Positions 26,537 to 30,409 of a stretch of 50,881 nt of DNA are shown in pieces. The stretch comes from Ruminococcaceae bacterium UBA2656 (GTDB lineage: Bacteria > Bacillota > Clostridia > Oscillospirales > Acutalibacteraceae): the NCBI GenBank assembly GCA_002359465.1, contig DENA01000015.1:76913-127793 (forward strand). Reading direction: 5' to 3'. The stretch's first letter is position 1; the number at the start of each line of letters is the position of its first letter. A program made the translations under genes and the position numbers. The notes beneath the pieces were generated by a model, which saw nothing but the letters and a program-made list of their open reading frames with translations, was not told the origin of the DNA and ran no database searches.

Positions 26537-27739
26537 TCACTTCATAGACGCGATAATACTGTCGGCAAGGGCATCCATTTCCGGCAGGTTATCCTCGTTC
26601 ATGGCGGAATTCAGCGTCAGCTTTTCGTCCAGAACATTGATTTCTTTCATCTCATTGTCCAGGAACTCGCGCATCAGTGTGCCGGATTTGCAGGCCCAGG
26701 AGCCGTTTTCCACAATGGCGACGGTACGCTTCTGAAGGTTCAGCGCCTTCATATCCATCAGATAATTGTGCATCGGCGGATAAATTCCCAGATTATAGGT
26801 AACGGAAGCCAGCACCACGTGGCTGAGGCGGAAGGTCTCTGAAATCAGGTAGGAGACATGGGTATTGGACACGTCGTACATAACCACATTGGTCATGCCC
26901 TTCTCCACCAGCCTGGAGGCCAGGGCGCCGGCGGCGCTCTCGGTATTGCCGTACATGGTGGCGTAAACGATCATGACACCCTTTTCTTCCGGTTCATATC
27001 TGCTCCATTTGTCGTACTTATCGAGGAAGTATCCCAGATTGCTGCGCCAGACCGGCCCGTGCAGGGGACAGATAATCTTGATGTCGATTCCGGCGGCTTT
27101 CTTCAGCAGGGCCTGAACGTGCGGTCCGTATTTCCCCACGATATTGGTATAATACCGCCGGGCATCGTCGATCCAGTCGCGGTCAAAATTAACCTCATCG
27201 TTAAAGAGCTTTCCATCCAGCGCGCCGAAAGAGCCGAAAGCATCCGCGGAGAACAGGACGCCGTTGGTCGTATCGAAGGTCACCATGGCCTCCGGCCAGT
27301 GAACCATCGGCGCGGACACGAAGGTCACCACATGCTTGCCAAAGGTTCTGGTGTCGCCCTCCTTGACTTCCTCCATCCGTCCGTCAACATGGAAGCCAAA
27401 CTGACGCATCAGCATAAAAGCTTTTTCGGTGCTGATAATTCTGACTTTGGGATAGCGCAGAAGAATTTCTTCAATAGACGCGCCGTGATCCGGCTCCATG
27501 TGGTTGATTATCAGGTAATCGAGCGGTCTGCCGTCCAGAACAAACTCGACATTCTCCAAAAACTGACGGCAGGCCGACCAGTCCACCGTATCGAACAGCA
27601 CGGTCTGCTTATCCAGAAGCAGGTACGAATTGTAGGAAACCCCGCGCGGAATAGGATGAATATTTTCAAAAAGAGCCAGCCGGCGGTCATTGGCCCCTAC
27701 CCAATACAGATTATCCGTTACTTTTCTTACACAATGCAT
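26537..27739 (-). CDS. fprA: A-type flavodiiron protein (O2/NO reductase, FprA)
   Basis: The protein has 400 residues. The metallo-beta-lactamase domain (1-245) carries all expected di-iron ligands: His80, Glu82, Asp84 (HMEPDH), His147 (MVHWPE), Asp166 (SADAFG) and His227 (PLHGPV). The flavodoxin domain begins near 256 (IVYATMYGNTESAA). Such proteins reduce O2 to water, or NO to N2O, in the cytoplasm of anaerobes, taking electrons from rubredoxin or F420H2. It is 50 bases after a gene whose protein ends in a rubredoxin domain, so a donor-acceptor pair is likely. AAGGAGG precedes the ATG. It has no rubredoxin or flavin-reductase extension of its own. Confidence 0.94.
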   Translation of the reverse strand: MHCVRKVTDNLYWVGANDRRLALFENIHPIPRGVSYNSYLLLDKQTVLFDTVDWSACRQFLENVEFVLDGRPLDYLIINHMEPDHGASIEEILLRYPKVRIISTEKAFMLMRQFGFHVDGRMEEVKEGDTRTFGKHVVTFVSAPMVHWPEAMVTFDTTNGVLFSADAFGSFGALDGKLFNDEVNFDRDWIDDARRYYTNIVGKYGPHVQALLKKAAGIDIKIICPLHGPVWRSNLGYFLDKYDKWSRYEPEEKGVMIVYATMYGNTESAAGALASRLVEKGMTNVVMYDVSNTHVSYLISETFRLSHVVLASVTYNLGIYPPMHNYLMDMKALNLQKRTVAIVENGSWACKSGTLMREFLDNEMKEINVLDEKLTLNSAMNEDNLPEMDALADSIIASMK

Positions 27740-27789
27740 GGTTCAATCCTCCTTGAAACTCAATCGTTATTTTTAGGCAGCAGTGCCTC

Positions 27790-29694
27790 TCAGACCTCTA
27801 TAAACTGATCTTTTTCCTCGCCGCATTCCGGGCAGATCCATTCTTCCGGAAGCGTGTCGAACAGGGTTCCGGGACGGACGTCGTTCTCCGGATCGCCGAC
27901 GGCGGGATCATATTCGTACCCGCAGCCATTGCAGACATAGCGTTTCCATGTGGGAATGACCTTCTTGGGGACGGCCCGCTTCATTTTCTTCATCGGGGGC
28001 GCCGGTTTTTTGGCTTCGCCGTTGTCCAGGGCGGCGGTAAGCAGCGGAAGGATTTCCAGCACGTCGCCAACAATGCCGTAGTCGCAGTTCTTAAAGACGG
28101 GCGCGTTGGGATTGTTGTTGATGGCGACAATCGTCGTGGCGTCCTTAATGCCCTTCAGATGCTGGCCCGCGCCTGAAATGCCGCAGGCTATGTACAGATT
28201 GCCGCTGAACTTCTGTCCGGACATGCCCACATAGCGGTTCAGCGGAACATATTTCAGCGTTTCCGCCACCGGACGGGAGGAGCCGAGCGCCGCGCCCGCC
28301 TGAACGGCAAGGGCTTTCACCAGTTCCATATTTTCCTTCGCGCCGATGCCCTTTCCGGCGCTGACCACACGCTCCGCCTTGGTGATGGGCGTATCGATAT
28401 CAATGCCGACGGTAAAGTCGTAGCCGTCCGCTTTGAGAGCGTCCACCAGCGTGTTTACCCGCTCTACGGAGGTACCCTCTTTCAGTATCATCTTCTTGCG
28501 CACACCGGTCACCGGCCCGTGCTGAGCTGCGGCGGGAACGTCGTTCTTCGGCATTTTCCCAATAATATGGGAGGCAATGACCACCCTTTGAATCTCATTA
28601 GTTCCCTCGTAAATGGTGCAGATTTTCGCGTCACGGTAAGCACGCTCTACTTCCATCCCCTTCAGATAACCGCTGCCGCCGAAAATCTGGAGCGCGTCGT
28701 TGACAATCTCAAGGCAGACGTCGGAGGCATACTGTTTGGCCATGGCGGACTCCATGCCGTAAGGCTCGTGGTTCTGTTTAAGTTCGGCGGCGCTGTAGAT
28801 CAGCAGCCGCGCCGCGCGGAGCTTGGTTGCCATGTCGGCTAATTTGAAAGCAACAATCTGTTGTTGGCAGATGGGTCTGCCGAATTGGACGCGCTCTTTG
28901 GAATACTCCAGCGCGTTTTCATATGCGCCCTGCGCGATTCCCAGAGCCTGTGAAGCGATGCCGATGCGTCCGCCGTCCAGCGTAGACATGGCAATCTTAA
29001 AGCCCTGCCCTTCTTCACCCAGCAGATTTTCCTTTGGAACCTTCACATCGTTGAAAATCAGCTCCGCGGTAGAGGAGGAGCGGATACCCATTTTGTCGTA
29101 ATGGTCGCCGAAGGTGAAGCCCTCCCAGCCCTTTTCCACAATGAAAGCACTGATGCCGCGGGTACCGATGTCCGGGGTGGTGACGGCGAATACCACATAG
29201 GTATCGGCCTTGTCGGCATTCGTAATGAAAATTTTACCTCCGTTCAGGATGTAATGATCGCCATCAGGAACAGCGGTGGTTTCCGTGCCGCCCGCGTCGC
29301 TGCCCGCGTTCTGCTCGGTCAGTCCGAAGGCACCCAGTTTTTCGCCCTTTGCCAGCGGAACCAGATATTTCTGCTTCTGCTCCTCCGTGCCGTAGGCGAA
29401 AATCGGCCATGACCCCAGCGAGGTGTGCGCGGAAAGAATAACGCCGGTGCCGCCGTCCACACGGGACAGCTCCTCCACGGTGACGGCGTAGCTGACCATA
29501 TCCAGGCCCATGCCGCCGTACTCCTTCGGATAAGGGATTCCCATCCACCCAAGCCCGCCCAGCTTGCCAACGATTTCTACGGGAAATTCATTTTCCTTGT
29601 CCAGCAGAAACGCCAGAGGTTTTACCTCCGATTCCGCAAACTCCCGGACTTTTGCACGAAGCTCCTCGTGATCTTCCGTCGTTTTAAAAGACAT
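27790..29694 (-). CDS. Acyl-CoA dehydrogenase - EtfA FAD-binding domain - rubredoxin fusion protein
   Basis: The protein has 634 residues in three parts. Residues 1-380 are a complete short-chain acyl-CoA dehydrogenase with [30 protein letters not shown] and the catalytic Glu363 in YEGTNEIQR. Residues about 440-560 match only the C-terminal FAD-binding domain of electron-transfer flavoprotein alpha ([53 protein letters not shown] and [12 protein letters not shown]). The EtfA N-terminal domain and EtfB are absent. Residues 586-634 are a full rubredoxin with Cys588, 591, 621 and 624. The chain suggests electron flow from acyl-CoA through two flavins to rubredoxin, then to the flavodiiron protein encoded next. 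A good Shine-Dalgarno (GGGAGG) precedes the ATG, and nothing looks frameshifted. Confidence 0.93.
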
Positions 29695-29818
29695 ATTGCT
29701 TCCTCCCTTTGAAATAATCAGTTATATTTGATTTCTATGAATTCTGTTCAGAAAAATTCATAAAACAGGATGCGCAGCTCTGCGGCGGCAGATCAAAATC
29801 CGGCCGCCTTCTATACTT

Positions 29819-29831
29819 GATAAATTTTATC
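29819..29831. promoter_or_regulatory. Palindrome upstream of the fusion gene, possible Rrf2 site
   Basis: GATAAA-T-TTTATC is a perfect 13-base palindrome about 125 bases upstream of the acyl-CoA dehydrogenase fusion start. Read on the minus strand it shares ATAAAAT with the larger palindrome at the Rrf2 promoter. The link is weak. I found no clear promoter of the fusion gene in the 187-base gap. Confidence 0.35.
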
Positions 29832-29881
29832 CACTTTAGAAGTAAAAAAACACACTGGCAATATAAATCATTTTTTAAGCC

Positions 29882-30292
29882 TTATTCGTCTTTAAATAAC
29901 ATCTGGTGCAGGCTAAGCGCGCGCAGCTCCGCGTCCAGCACACCCTGAATCCGCAGCAGCTGCTGATGGACTGTGCAGGGTGAACTGCATTTTTGCTGCC
30001 ACGCACATTGAAATCCTGGCTGCATACAGGCGCTGATCATCTTTTCGGCCTGCATAATTTCCGTCAAATCGTAGAGGCTCACCTTTTTAAGGTCTGCAAT
30101 CAGCCGGCAGCCGCCGCCCACGCCACGGGTAGTTTGTACAAGTCCGGCACGCTCCAGTTTTTTAAGAATCTTATATACAAACTGCTGCGGAAGCAATTCC
30201 CGCCGGCAGATGTCCCCCGTCGTAACCTGTTCCCCGCCCGACATTGCGCGCAGGACGCGCAGGGCATAATCTGTTTCCCGTGTAATCAGCAG
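29882..30292 (-). CDS. Rrf2-family regulator with Fe-S cysteine cluster (IscR/NsrR-like)
   Basis: About 136 residues if started at CTG 30292, which gives the standard Rrf2 opening (M)LITRETDYALRVLRAM and sits 6 bases after GGAGGGG. The alternative is GTG 30307, which overlaps that Shine-Dalgarno. Residues about 1-65 are the winged helix (ITRETDYALRVLRAM, LLPQQFVYKILKKLERAGLV, GVGGGCRL). After it come Cys89, Cys96, Cys102 and Cys106 (CTG numbering) in SACMQPGFQCAWQQKCSSPC, the spacing expected of a cluster-binding Rrf2 sensor of Fe-S status, O2 or NO. It is upstream of, and co-directional with, the dehydrogenase-rubredoxin and flavodiiron genes, so it is their likely regulator. Confidence 0.88.
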   Translation of the reverse strand: MLITRETDYALRVLRAMSGGEQVTTGDICRRELLPQQFVYKILKKLERAGLVQTTRGVGGGCRLIADLKKVSLYDLTEIMQAEKMISACMQPGFQCAWQQKCSSPCTVHQQLLRIQGVLDAELRALSLHQMLFKDE

Positions 30293-30310
30293 AATGAACC
30301 CCTCCACTCA

Positions 30311-30331
30311 ATAAAATCCGTAAGATTTTAT
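30311..30331. promoter_or_regulatory. Operator palindrome at the Rrf2 promoter
   Basis: A perfect inverted repeat ATAAAATC-CGTAA-GATTTTAT lies between the -10 box and the start of the Rrf2 gene, covering roughly +5 to +25. Its size and place suit autorepression by the encoded Rrf2 dimer. Confidence 0.75.
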
Positions 30332-30342
30332 TCATTATTGAC

Positions 30343-30371
30343 AGTATATCATTCTGGATAAGTTTTGTCAA
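30343..30371 (-). promoter_or_regulatory. Strong sigma-A promoter of the Rrf2-led unit
   Basis: On the minus strand a perfect TTGACA (30366-30371), a 17-base spacer and TATACT (30343-30348). The operator palindrome follows immediately. Confidence 0.85.
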
Positions 30372-30409
30372 GTTTATATCCGATATTTTTCCATCATTCA
30401 GACGACCGC

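What the first reader, a model, noticed from the sequence alone, without database searches (positions are those of the whole stretch)
26537..30371. Acyl-CoA dehydrogenase - EtfA domain - rubredoxin fusion paired with a flavodiiron protein and a cysteine-cluster Rrf2 sensor
Seen: one 634-residue chain holds a complete acyl-CoA dehydrogenase (catalytic Glu363), only the FAD-binding domain of EtfA, and a full rubredoxin with four Cys. The next gene, 50 bases on, is a flavodiiron protein with all metal ligands. Upstream is an Rrf2 regulator with four clustered Cys. Known: flavodiiron proteins take electrons from rubredoxin and reduce O2 or NO; EtfA domain II is the mobile flavin that accepts electrons from acyl-CoA dehydrogenases. 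Inference: electrons from a saturated acyl-CoA such as butyryl-CoA pass through FAD and rubredoxin to the flavodiiron protein, giving an ETF-free oxygen or NO defence fuelled by a fermentation product, switched by an Fe-S sensor. I do not know of a description of this circuit.
Basis: partly seen in the sequence, partly recalled or inferred. Interest (0 to 1): 0.85.

Follow-up and report, generated by a model that had tools for sequence, protein, structure and literature searches.

The report
Butyryl-CoA-powered oxygen-reducing enzyme pair (BOOR)
This gene trio encodes a known enzyme pair with which oxygen-shy fermenting bacteria burn a fermentation intermediate to turn oxygen into water, next to its probable iron-sulfur switch; it was described from Fusobacterium in 2024, so the locus is ordinary, though a likely switch-binding DNA site is a small new detail.

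Summary
Window 27790-29694 (-) encodes one 634-residue chain: short-chain acyl-CoA dehydrogenase, FAD-binding domain of EtfA only, and rubredoxin. A flavodiiron protein follows 50 bases on; an Rrf2 regulator lies upstream. But the circuit is already described: butyryl-CoA oxygen oxidoreductase (BOOR; [quoted passage not shown] A July 2026 preprint already reports the Rrf2-BCR-FDP neighbourhood in gut Clostridia. The window fusion is 85% identical to one of Fusobacterium ulcerans. A flavodiiron gene follows the fusion in 57 of 59 loci examined (one miss is a contig end). The genome also carries thl-crt-hbd-bcd-etfBA and Rnf genes. Small additions: a 19-bp palindrome, CTKGAYAAANTTTRTCMAG, at the rrf2 and bcr promoters and, at one mismatch or fewer, nowhere else in this 86%-complete genome (probable Rrf2 operator); three of the four clustered Cys are conserved, the fourth is not; and a rubredoxin-less variant beside superoxide reductase and hemerythrin genes in two relatives of one genus.

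The parts
26537..27739 (-). Flavodiiron protein (diiron beta-lactamase-like domain + flavodoxin), FDP subunit of BOOR
   Evidence: Pfam ODP + Flavodoxin_1; aligned with solved FDPs, ligands kept; 70-79% identical to the FDP next to the fusion in four Fusobacteriaceae loci
27790..29694 (-). Acyl-CoA dehydrogenase-EtfA(FAD domain)-rubredoxin fusion, BCR subunit of BOOR
   Evidence: 85% identical to F. ulcerans P0119 over the full length
28564..29679 (-). Short-chain acyl-CoA dehydrogenase part (residues 6-377, catalytic Glu363)
   Evidence: Pfam; best PDB match the Bcd of the C. difficile Bcd-Etf complex 5ol2_C by sequence and fold
28144..28386 (-). EtfA FAD-binding domain (residues 437-517)
   Evidence: PF00766; aligned to 1efp, 5ol2 and 1efv EtfA, with the SR, GISGA-QHL and IVAIN stretches kept (that these line the FAD is recalled)
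27802..27942 (-). Rubredoxin (residues 585-631; Cys588, 591, 621, 624)
   Evidence: PF00301, PDB rubredoxins, Cys invariant in 24 aligned sequences
29882..30307 (-). Rrf2-family regulator; probable start CTG at codon 6 of this ORF; conserved Cys94, 101, 111 and Asp (residue 8 from the CTG)
   Evidence: PF02082; alignment of 12 Rrf2 proteins; start region
30354..30372 (-). Predicted Rrf2 operator in the rrf2 promoter, CTTGACAAAACTTATCCAG, overlapping a -35-like TTGACA (30366-30371; -10-like TATACT 30343-30348, 17-bp spacer; promoter read by eye)
29816..29834 (-). Predicted second Rrf2 operator upstream of the fusion gene, GTGGATAAAATTTATCAAG

Best explanation
A butyryl-CoA:O2 oxidoreductase (BOOR) locus with its local Fe-S regulator. 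The dehydrogenase domain oxidises butyryl-CoA (or a similar short acyl-CoA) to the enoyl-CoA; electrons go from its FAD to the FAD of the fused EtfA domain, then to the fused rubredoxin iron, and on to FMN and the diiron site of the separately encoded flavodiiron protein, which reduces O2 to water. The enoyl-CoA can be re-reduced by the genome's Bcd-EtfBA (presumed bifurcating, not tested), so O2 removal does not spend NADH directly. Rrf2, probably with an Fe-S cluster held by three Cys and Asp, represses from a palindrome at its own and the fusion's promoter and is released when the cluster is oxidised. Shown here: genes, domains, cofactor residues, conserved order, butyryl-CoA pathway and Rnf genes in the genome, palindrome. 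Reported elsewhere for the F. nucleatum homologue: the reaction and the complex. Inferred: activity of this copy, order of electron steps, cluster, repression, signal.
For: Domain order and residues; 85% identity to a Fusobacterium ulcerans fusion; FDP directly downstream on the same strand in 57 of 59 full-length fusion loci, this one included; biochemistry of the homologous pair FN1424-FN1423 as reported in PMC12288474 (passages) and PMC12630350 (passages); Rrf2-BCR-FDP neighbourhood in preprint PMC13404960 (passages and section 13); thiolase, crotonase, 3-hydroxyacyl-CoA dehydrogenase, bcd, etfB, etfA in a row on contig C20 with a CoA transferase on the other strand, RnfC and an RnfD-family gene on C27 of the same genome; operator-like palindrome at both promoters.
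Against: No activity data for this copy. FN1424 itself was not compared; kinship was measured to F. ulcerans and Fusobacteriaceae loci. Rrf2 is adjacent in only 17 of 58 loci, so the regulator is not an obligate part. The palindrome pattern was written after looking at 14 of the loci, so upstream of rrf2 only L043, L127 and L144 test it independently: two of three match, at 3-4 mismatches; five of 17 Rrf2-linked loci lack it, and the second site before bcr is found in only 5 of 18. crt in this genome is interrupted by an N and reads in two frames, probably an assembly flaw.
Confidence: 0.9

Rival explanations
1. The pair mainly reduces NO: a flavodiiron NO reductase fed by acyl-CoA, with an NsrR-like Rrf2 as NO sensor.
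For: Closest solved FDP by sequence is the E. coli NO reductase flavorubredoxin; the NCBIfam best match has that name but scores 228.5 bits against a cut-off of 635; Rrf2 has the three-Cys plus Asp arrangement that the preprint compares with NsrR.
Against: The review states that the F. nucleatum BCR-FDP complex showed no NO reductase activity (PMC12288474).
Confidence: 0.06
2. The preferred substrate here is not butyryl-CoA but hexanoyl-CoA or a longer acyl-CoA made by chain elongation, the nearest named relatives being Caproiciproducens.
For: Closest named homologue is from Caproiciproducens sp. CPB-2, 92%; that the genus makes caproate is recalled.
Against: Best PDB sequence and fold match is a butyryl-CoA dehydrogenase; the substrate pocket was not analysed. 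It would not change the kind of system.
Confidence: 0.2
3. The fusion works in the other direction, as an enoyl-CoA reductase that takes electrons through its rubredoxin, with FDP only a neighbour.
For: NCBIfam best match is acryloyl-CoA reductase AcrC, but below its cut-off, 476 against 640 bits.
Against: Near-constant FDP adjacency and the reported butyryl-CoA-driven O2 reduction of the homologue.
Confidence: 0.03

Closest known systems
BOOR, butyryl-CoA oxygen oxidoreductase of Fusobacterium nucleatum (BCR FN1424 + FDP FN1423)
   Same: Same domain order (Bcd, C-terminal part of EtfA, rubredoxin) and same neighbouring FDP in a two-gene unit; 85% identity to the F. ulcerans fusion
   Different: An Rrf2 gene stands directly upstream here; of four Fusobacteriaceae loci, three (L041, L050, L056; 1.9-5 kb upstream held) have none and L043 only a distant one 487 bp away
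Rrf2 (UniRef50_C0FN14)-BCR-FDP neighbourhood of gut Clostridia, preprint PMC13404960
   Same: Rrf2 upstream of BCR and FDP; three Cys and Asp8; proposed O2/ROS switch
   Different: It counts 149 neighbourhoods (BCR in 123, FDP in 115) but the parts read give no operator sequence; identity of the window Rrf2 to C0FN14 was not measured
Bcd-EtfAB electron-bifurcating complex (PDB 5ol2)
   Same: Dehydrogenase and EtfA FAD domain are homologous
   Different: No EtfB and no PF01012 domain in the fusion, so no second ETF flavin site of that kind; the electron acceptor is a fused rubredoxin
Flavorubredoxin / rubredoxin:oxygen oxidoreductase (PDB 6etb, 1e5d)
   Same: Homologous FDP, rubredoxin as electron donor (recalled)
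   Different: Electrons come from an acyl-CoA through the fused dehydrogenase, not from NAD(P)H

Membership tests
BOOR | One chain with acyl-CoA dehydrogenase, EtfA FAD domain and rubredoxin | tested here: met
BOOR | Flavodiiron gene adjacent, same strand | tested here: met
   50 bases downstream; conserved in 57 of 59 loci
BOOR | Full-length sequence kinship to the Fusobacterium proteins | tested here: met
   85% to F. ulcerans P0119; fusion 74-77% (three loci) and FDP 70-79% (four loci) to Fusobacteriaceae; FN1424 and FN1423 themselves not compared
BOOR | Catalytic Glu, rubredoxin Cys and FDP metal ligands present | tested here: met
BOOR | Butyryl-CoA supply and Rnf in the genome (context, not strictly defining) | tested here: met
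   crt interrupted by an N in the assembly
BOOR | Butyryl-CoA-dependent O2 reduction by a complex of the two proteins | not testable with these tools
   needs purified proteins
Fe-S Rrf2 regulator (NsrR/IscR-like) | Rrf2 family with three conserved Cys (plus Asp8 as in NsrR) | tested here: met
   start codon, hence number 8, inferred
Fe-S Rrf2 regulator (NsrR/IscR-like) | Bound Fe-S cluster | not testable with these tools
   needs purified protein
Fe-S Rrf2 regulator (NsrR/IscR-like) | Specific DNA site at the controlled genes | tested here: inconclusive
   palindrome at both promoters, no other place with 1 mismatch or fewer in the genome; binding not shown, site missing in 5 of 17 Rrf2-linked loci
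Electron-bifurcating Bcd-Etf | EtfB and the PF01012 domain of EtfA present in the unit | tested here: not met
   PF01012 absent from the fusion; the adjacent genes read are rrf2 and FDP

The most novel reading that the evidence does not exclude
The acyl-CoA dehydrogenase-EtfA(FAD) unit is an exchangeable 'acyl-CoA head' that different anaerobes join to different oxidant-removing partners: via fused rubredoxin to a flavodiiron protein (this window, BOOR), and, in a rubredoxin-less form, directly to the desulforedoxin-type iron of a superoxide reductase beside a hemerythrin (two relatives of one genus), giving an acyl-CoA:superoxide oxidoreductase. In the Rrf2-bearing group the BOOR pair is a one-locus regulon controlled from the 19-bp palindrome.
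Probability: 0.25. Interest if true: 0.5.

Novelty: already known. Interest (0 to 1): 0.2.

Why it matters
What this adds is a testable operator for the regulator, a check that the fuel pathway sits in the same genome, and a rubredoxin-less variant next to superoxide reductase.

Tried and rejected
Rejected: that the fusion is a chance readthrough or assembly join. Of the 120 listed homologues (7999 candidates scored, best 120 shown), 117 are 84% identical or more over the full length; the other three (P0006, P0008, P0032) are longer proteins with 77-82% over 60-92% of the query. In the class sample 31 of 391 genomes, own included, have a match reaching residue 632 or beyond. Rejected: an FDP-free role for the intact fusion; L052 (Allobaculum, 60% identical) is the only clear case without an FDP, with about 5 kb held on either side. 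Considered: a wider Rrf2 regulon; the only third palindrome-like place in the genome (C9:106412, 2 mismatches) lies inside another reading frame, and the reversed-pattern control also gave one place; the genome is 86% complete, so sites could be missing. The AlphaFold model (mean pLDDT 81.8, pTM 0.66) gave butyryl-CoA dehydrogenase as best fold match, but its linkers are low-confidence, so no inter-cofactor distances were taken from it.

Rows left out of counts. One search used 58 loci (L006-L012 with 1.5 kb flanks, L036-L057 with up to 5 kb, L125-L153 with 1.5 kb); L013 (rubredoxin-less) and L058 (fusion cut by the contig end) were left out; L156 was added. In L051 and L057 the fusion reads in two frames; they were counted as fusion loci as they stand. 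Later loci L161-L175 and L182-L197 were not scanned for FDP, apart from regions refetched as L177-L181. Loci L059-L115 match only the dehydrogenase part and were not used. One search used 59 loci (the 58 plus L058).

Literature. Bystrom & Wolthers 2024 is not held and is known here only through passages of PMC12288474, PMC13404960 and PMC12630350. Two searches, for an Rrf2 binding motif with flavodiiron and Clostridia, and for a desulfoferrodoxin / acyl-CoA dehydrogenase / ETF fusion, returned no paper; each asked for four terms together in open-licence papers only, so this is weak evidence of absence.
Full report
What is there. The three genes are on the minus strand: rrf2 (29882-30307), the fusion (27790-29694) and the flavodiiron gene (26537-27739), with 187 and 50 bases between them. 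Pfam gives the fusion a complete acyl-CoA dehydrogenase (residues 6-377), the FAD-binding domain of EtfA (437-517) without the ETF domain PF01012, and a rubredoxin (585-631). The catalytic Glu363 and the four rubredoxin Cys are invariant, and the EtfA stretches SR, GISGA-QHL and IVAIN invariant or nearly so, in 24 aligned sequences (63-92% identical to the window). The EtfA part aligns with 1efp, 5ol2 and 1efv. The flavodiiron protein keeps His80, Glu82, Asp84, His85, His147, Asp166 and His227, aligned with solved flavodiiron proteins.

What it is. A fusion of exactly this order beside a flavodiiron gene has been studied biochemically in Fusobacterium nucleatum. A 2025 review (PMC12288474; passages read) states that FN1423 (FDP) is bicistronic with a protein made of a butyryl-CoA dehydrogenase domain, the C-terminus of EtfA and a rubredoxin; that the two proteins form a complex; [quoted passage not shown] that the complex had no NO reductase activity; and that many Firmicutes, including butyrogenic gut bacteria, encode it. 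The enzyme is called butyryl-CoA oxygen oxidoreductase, BOOR (primary paper Bystrom & Wolthers 2024, not held). A second paper names FN1423-FN1424 (PMC12630350; passages). The window fusion is 85% identical over the full length to a Fusobacterium ulcerans protein, and 74-77% to the fusion in three Fusobacteriaceae loci. FN1424 itself was not compared.

The regulator. A July 2026 preprint (PMC13404960; passages and section 13 read) found an Rrf2 regulator, UniRef50_C0FN14, whose close homologues in gut Clostridia are almost all next to BOOR gene pairs. It describes three conserved Cys plus Asp8 and proposes that oxidation of the cluster lifts repression. The window Rrf2 fits. In the window and in L007, L008 and L036 the likely start is a CTG that is codon 6 of the window's GTG ORF, behind a purine-rich GGAGGG or GGAGGGG; the conserved Asp is then residue 8.

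How constant is the pair. In 58 loci with a fusion from three searches, a flavodiiron gene lies directly downstream on the same strand in 56; L049 ends 217 bases after the fusion and cannot be judged, and L052 (Allobaculum, 60% identical) has none within about 5 kb. A 59th locus, L156, also has it, giving 57 of 59, the window's own included. An Rrf2 gene (phmmer E 1e-5 from the window Rrf2, within the flank held) lies upstream on the same strand in 17 of 58, one of them (L043) weak and 487 bp away. Occurrence is patchy: in the class sample 31 of 391 genomes, own included, carry a match reaching residue 632 or beyond. In a family sample 20 of 398 genomes carry a fusion match, 19 of them with a frame long enough for rubredoxin.

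The fuel. The same genome (2.69 Mb in 39 contigs, 86% complete) carries, in a row on contig C20, genes of the thiolase, crotonase, 3-hydroxyacyl-CoA dehydrogenase, acyl-CoA dehydrogenase, EtfB and EtfA families, with a CoA transferase on the other strand beyond, and RnfC and an RnfD-family gene on C27. The crotonase reads in two frames around an N, which looks like an assembly flaw. The review's scheme of BOOR, bifurcating Bcd-Etf and Rnf could thus run here; that it does, and that this Bcd-Etf bifurcates, is inference.

A probable operator. Reading the promoters of 14 Rrf2-linked loci showed an imperfect palindrome, CTKGAYAAANTTTRTCMAG. In the window it occurs with one mismatch at 30354-30372, over a -35-like box of rrf2, and at 29816-29834, upstream of the fusion (3 matches with up to 3 mismatches, 0.31 expected, 1 of 100 shuffles reached 3). 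In the whole genome only these two places have one mismatch or fewer; a third with two mismatches lies in a reading frame, and the reversed-pattern control gave one place. Upstream of rrf2, 12 of 17 loci match with 4 mismatches or fewer (10 with 2 or fewer); between rrf2 and bcr, 5 of 18 do (L006-L009 and L144); upstream of the fusion in loci without adjacent Rrf2, 5 of 41 do (one with 3, none with 2 or fewer); the reversed pattern never came below 5 mismatches in these 76 stretches. The misses upstream of rrf2 are L042, L043, L044, L045 and L047. The pattern was derived from 14 of these loci, so the independent ones are L127 (4 mismatches), L144 (3, and 4 at a second site) and L043 (none). 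It is a predicted site, not a shown one, and not universal in the Rrf2-linked group.

A related but different thing. Some fusions lack the rubredoxin. Of eight such loci read closely (L119, L154, L155, L177-L181), none shows a flavodiiron or Rrf2 neighbour in the 12-14 kb held; two, from genomes of one genus (G051, G595), have a desulfoferrodoxin-type superoxide reductase 38 or 18 bases upstream and a hemerythrin 69 or 170 bases downstream, all on one strand (Pfam for L119; L181 by similarity to the L119 proteins). This suggests that the dehydrogenase-EtfA unit can serve another oxidant-removing partner. It rests on two related genomes and adjacency alone; the other six do not show it.

Verdict. 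A correct observation with a largely correct mechanism of a system that is already known. The NO branch is not supported for the characterised homologue. Interest is low for the locus itself, with modest extra value in the operator prediction and the superoxide-reductase-linked variant.

Noticed in passing
L119:6061-8753 (G051) and L181:4456-7226 (G595): Rubredoxin-less acyl-CoA dehydrogenase-EtfA fusion in a same-strand row desulfoferrodoxin (superoxide reductase) - fusion - hemerythrin, gaps 38/69 and 18/170 bases.
   Followed up: partly
L154, L155, L177, L178, L179, L180: Other rubredoxin-less fusions: in L178-L180 beside an IscU-like/DUF134-like/Mrp-like cluster (families recalled from the sequences, not scanned), in L155 beside 3-hydroxyacyl-CoA dehydrogenase and acetyl-CoA hydrolase genes; electron partner unknown.
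   Followed up: partly
L052:5001-6869 (Allobaculum mucilyticum): Most diverged full fusion among those compared (60%) and the only clear one without a flavodiiron neighbour.
   Followed up: partly
window 29735-29763: Second inverted repeat in the bcr leader, TTATGAATT...AATTCATAG on the minus strand, similar in two close relatives (L007, L008); not the Rrf2 palindrome, role unknown.
   Followed up: no
window 30280-30310: rrf2 probably starts at a CTG codon just inside the GTG-started ORF, the GTG lying against the ribosome-binding site.
   Followed up: partly
L129, L136, L138: A second flavodiiron gene lies upstream of the fusion on the same strand as well as the one downstream.
   Followed up: no
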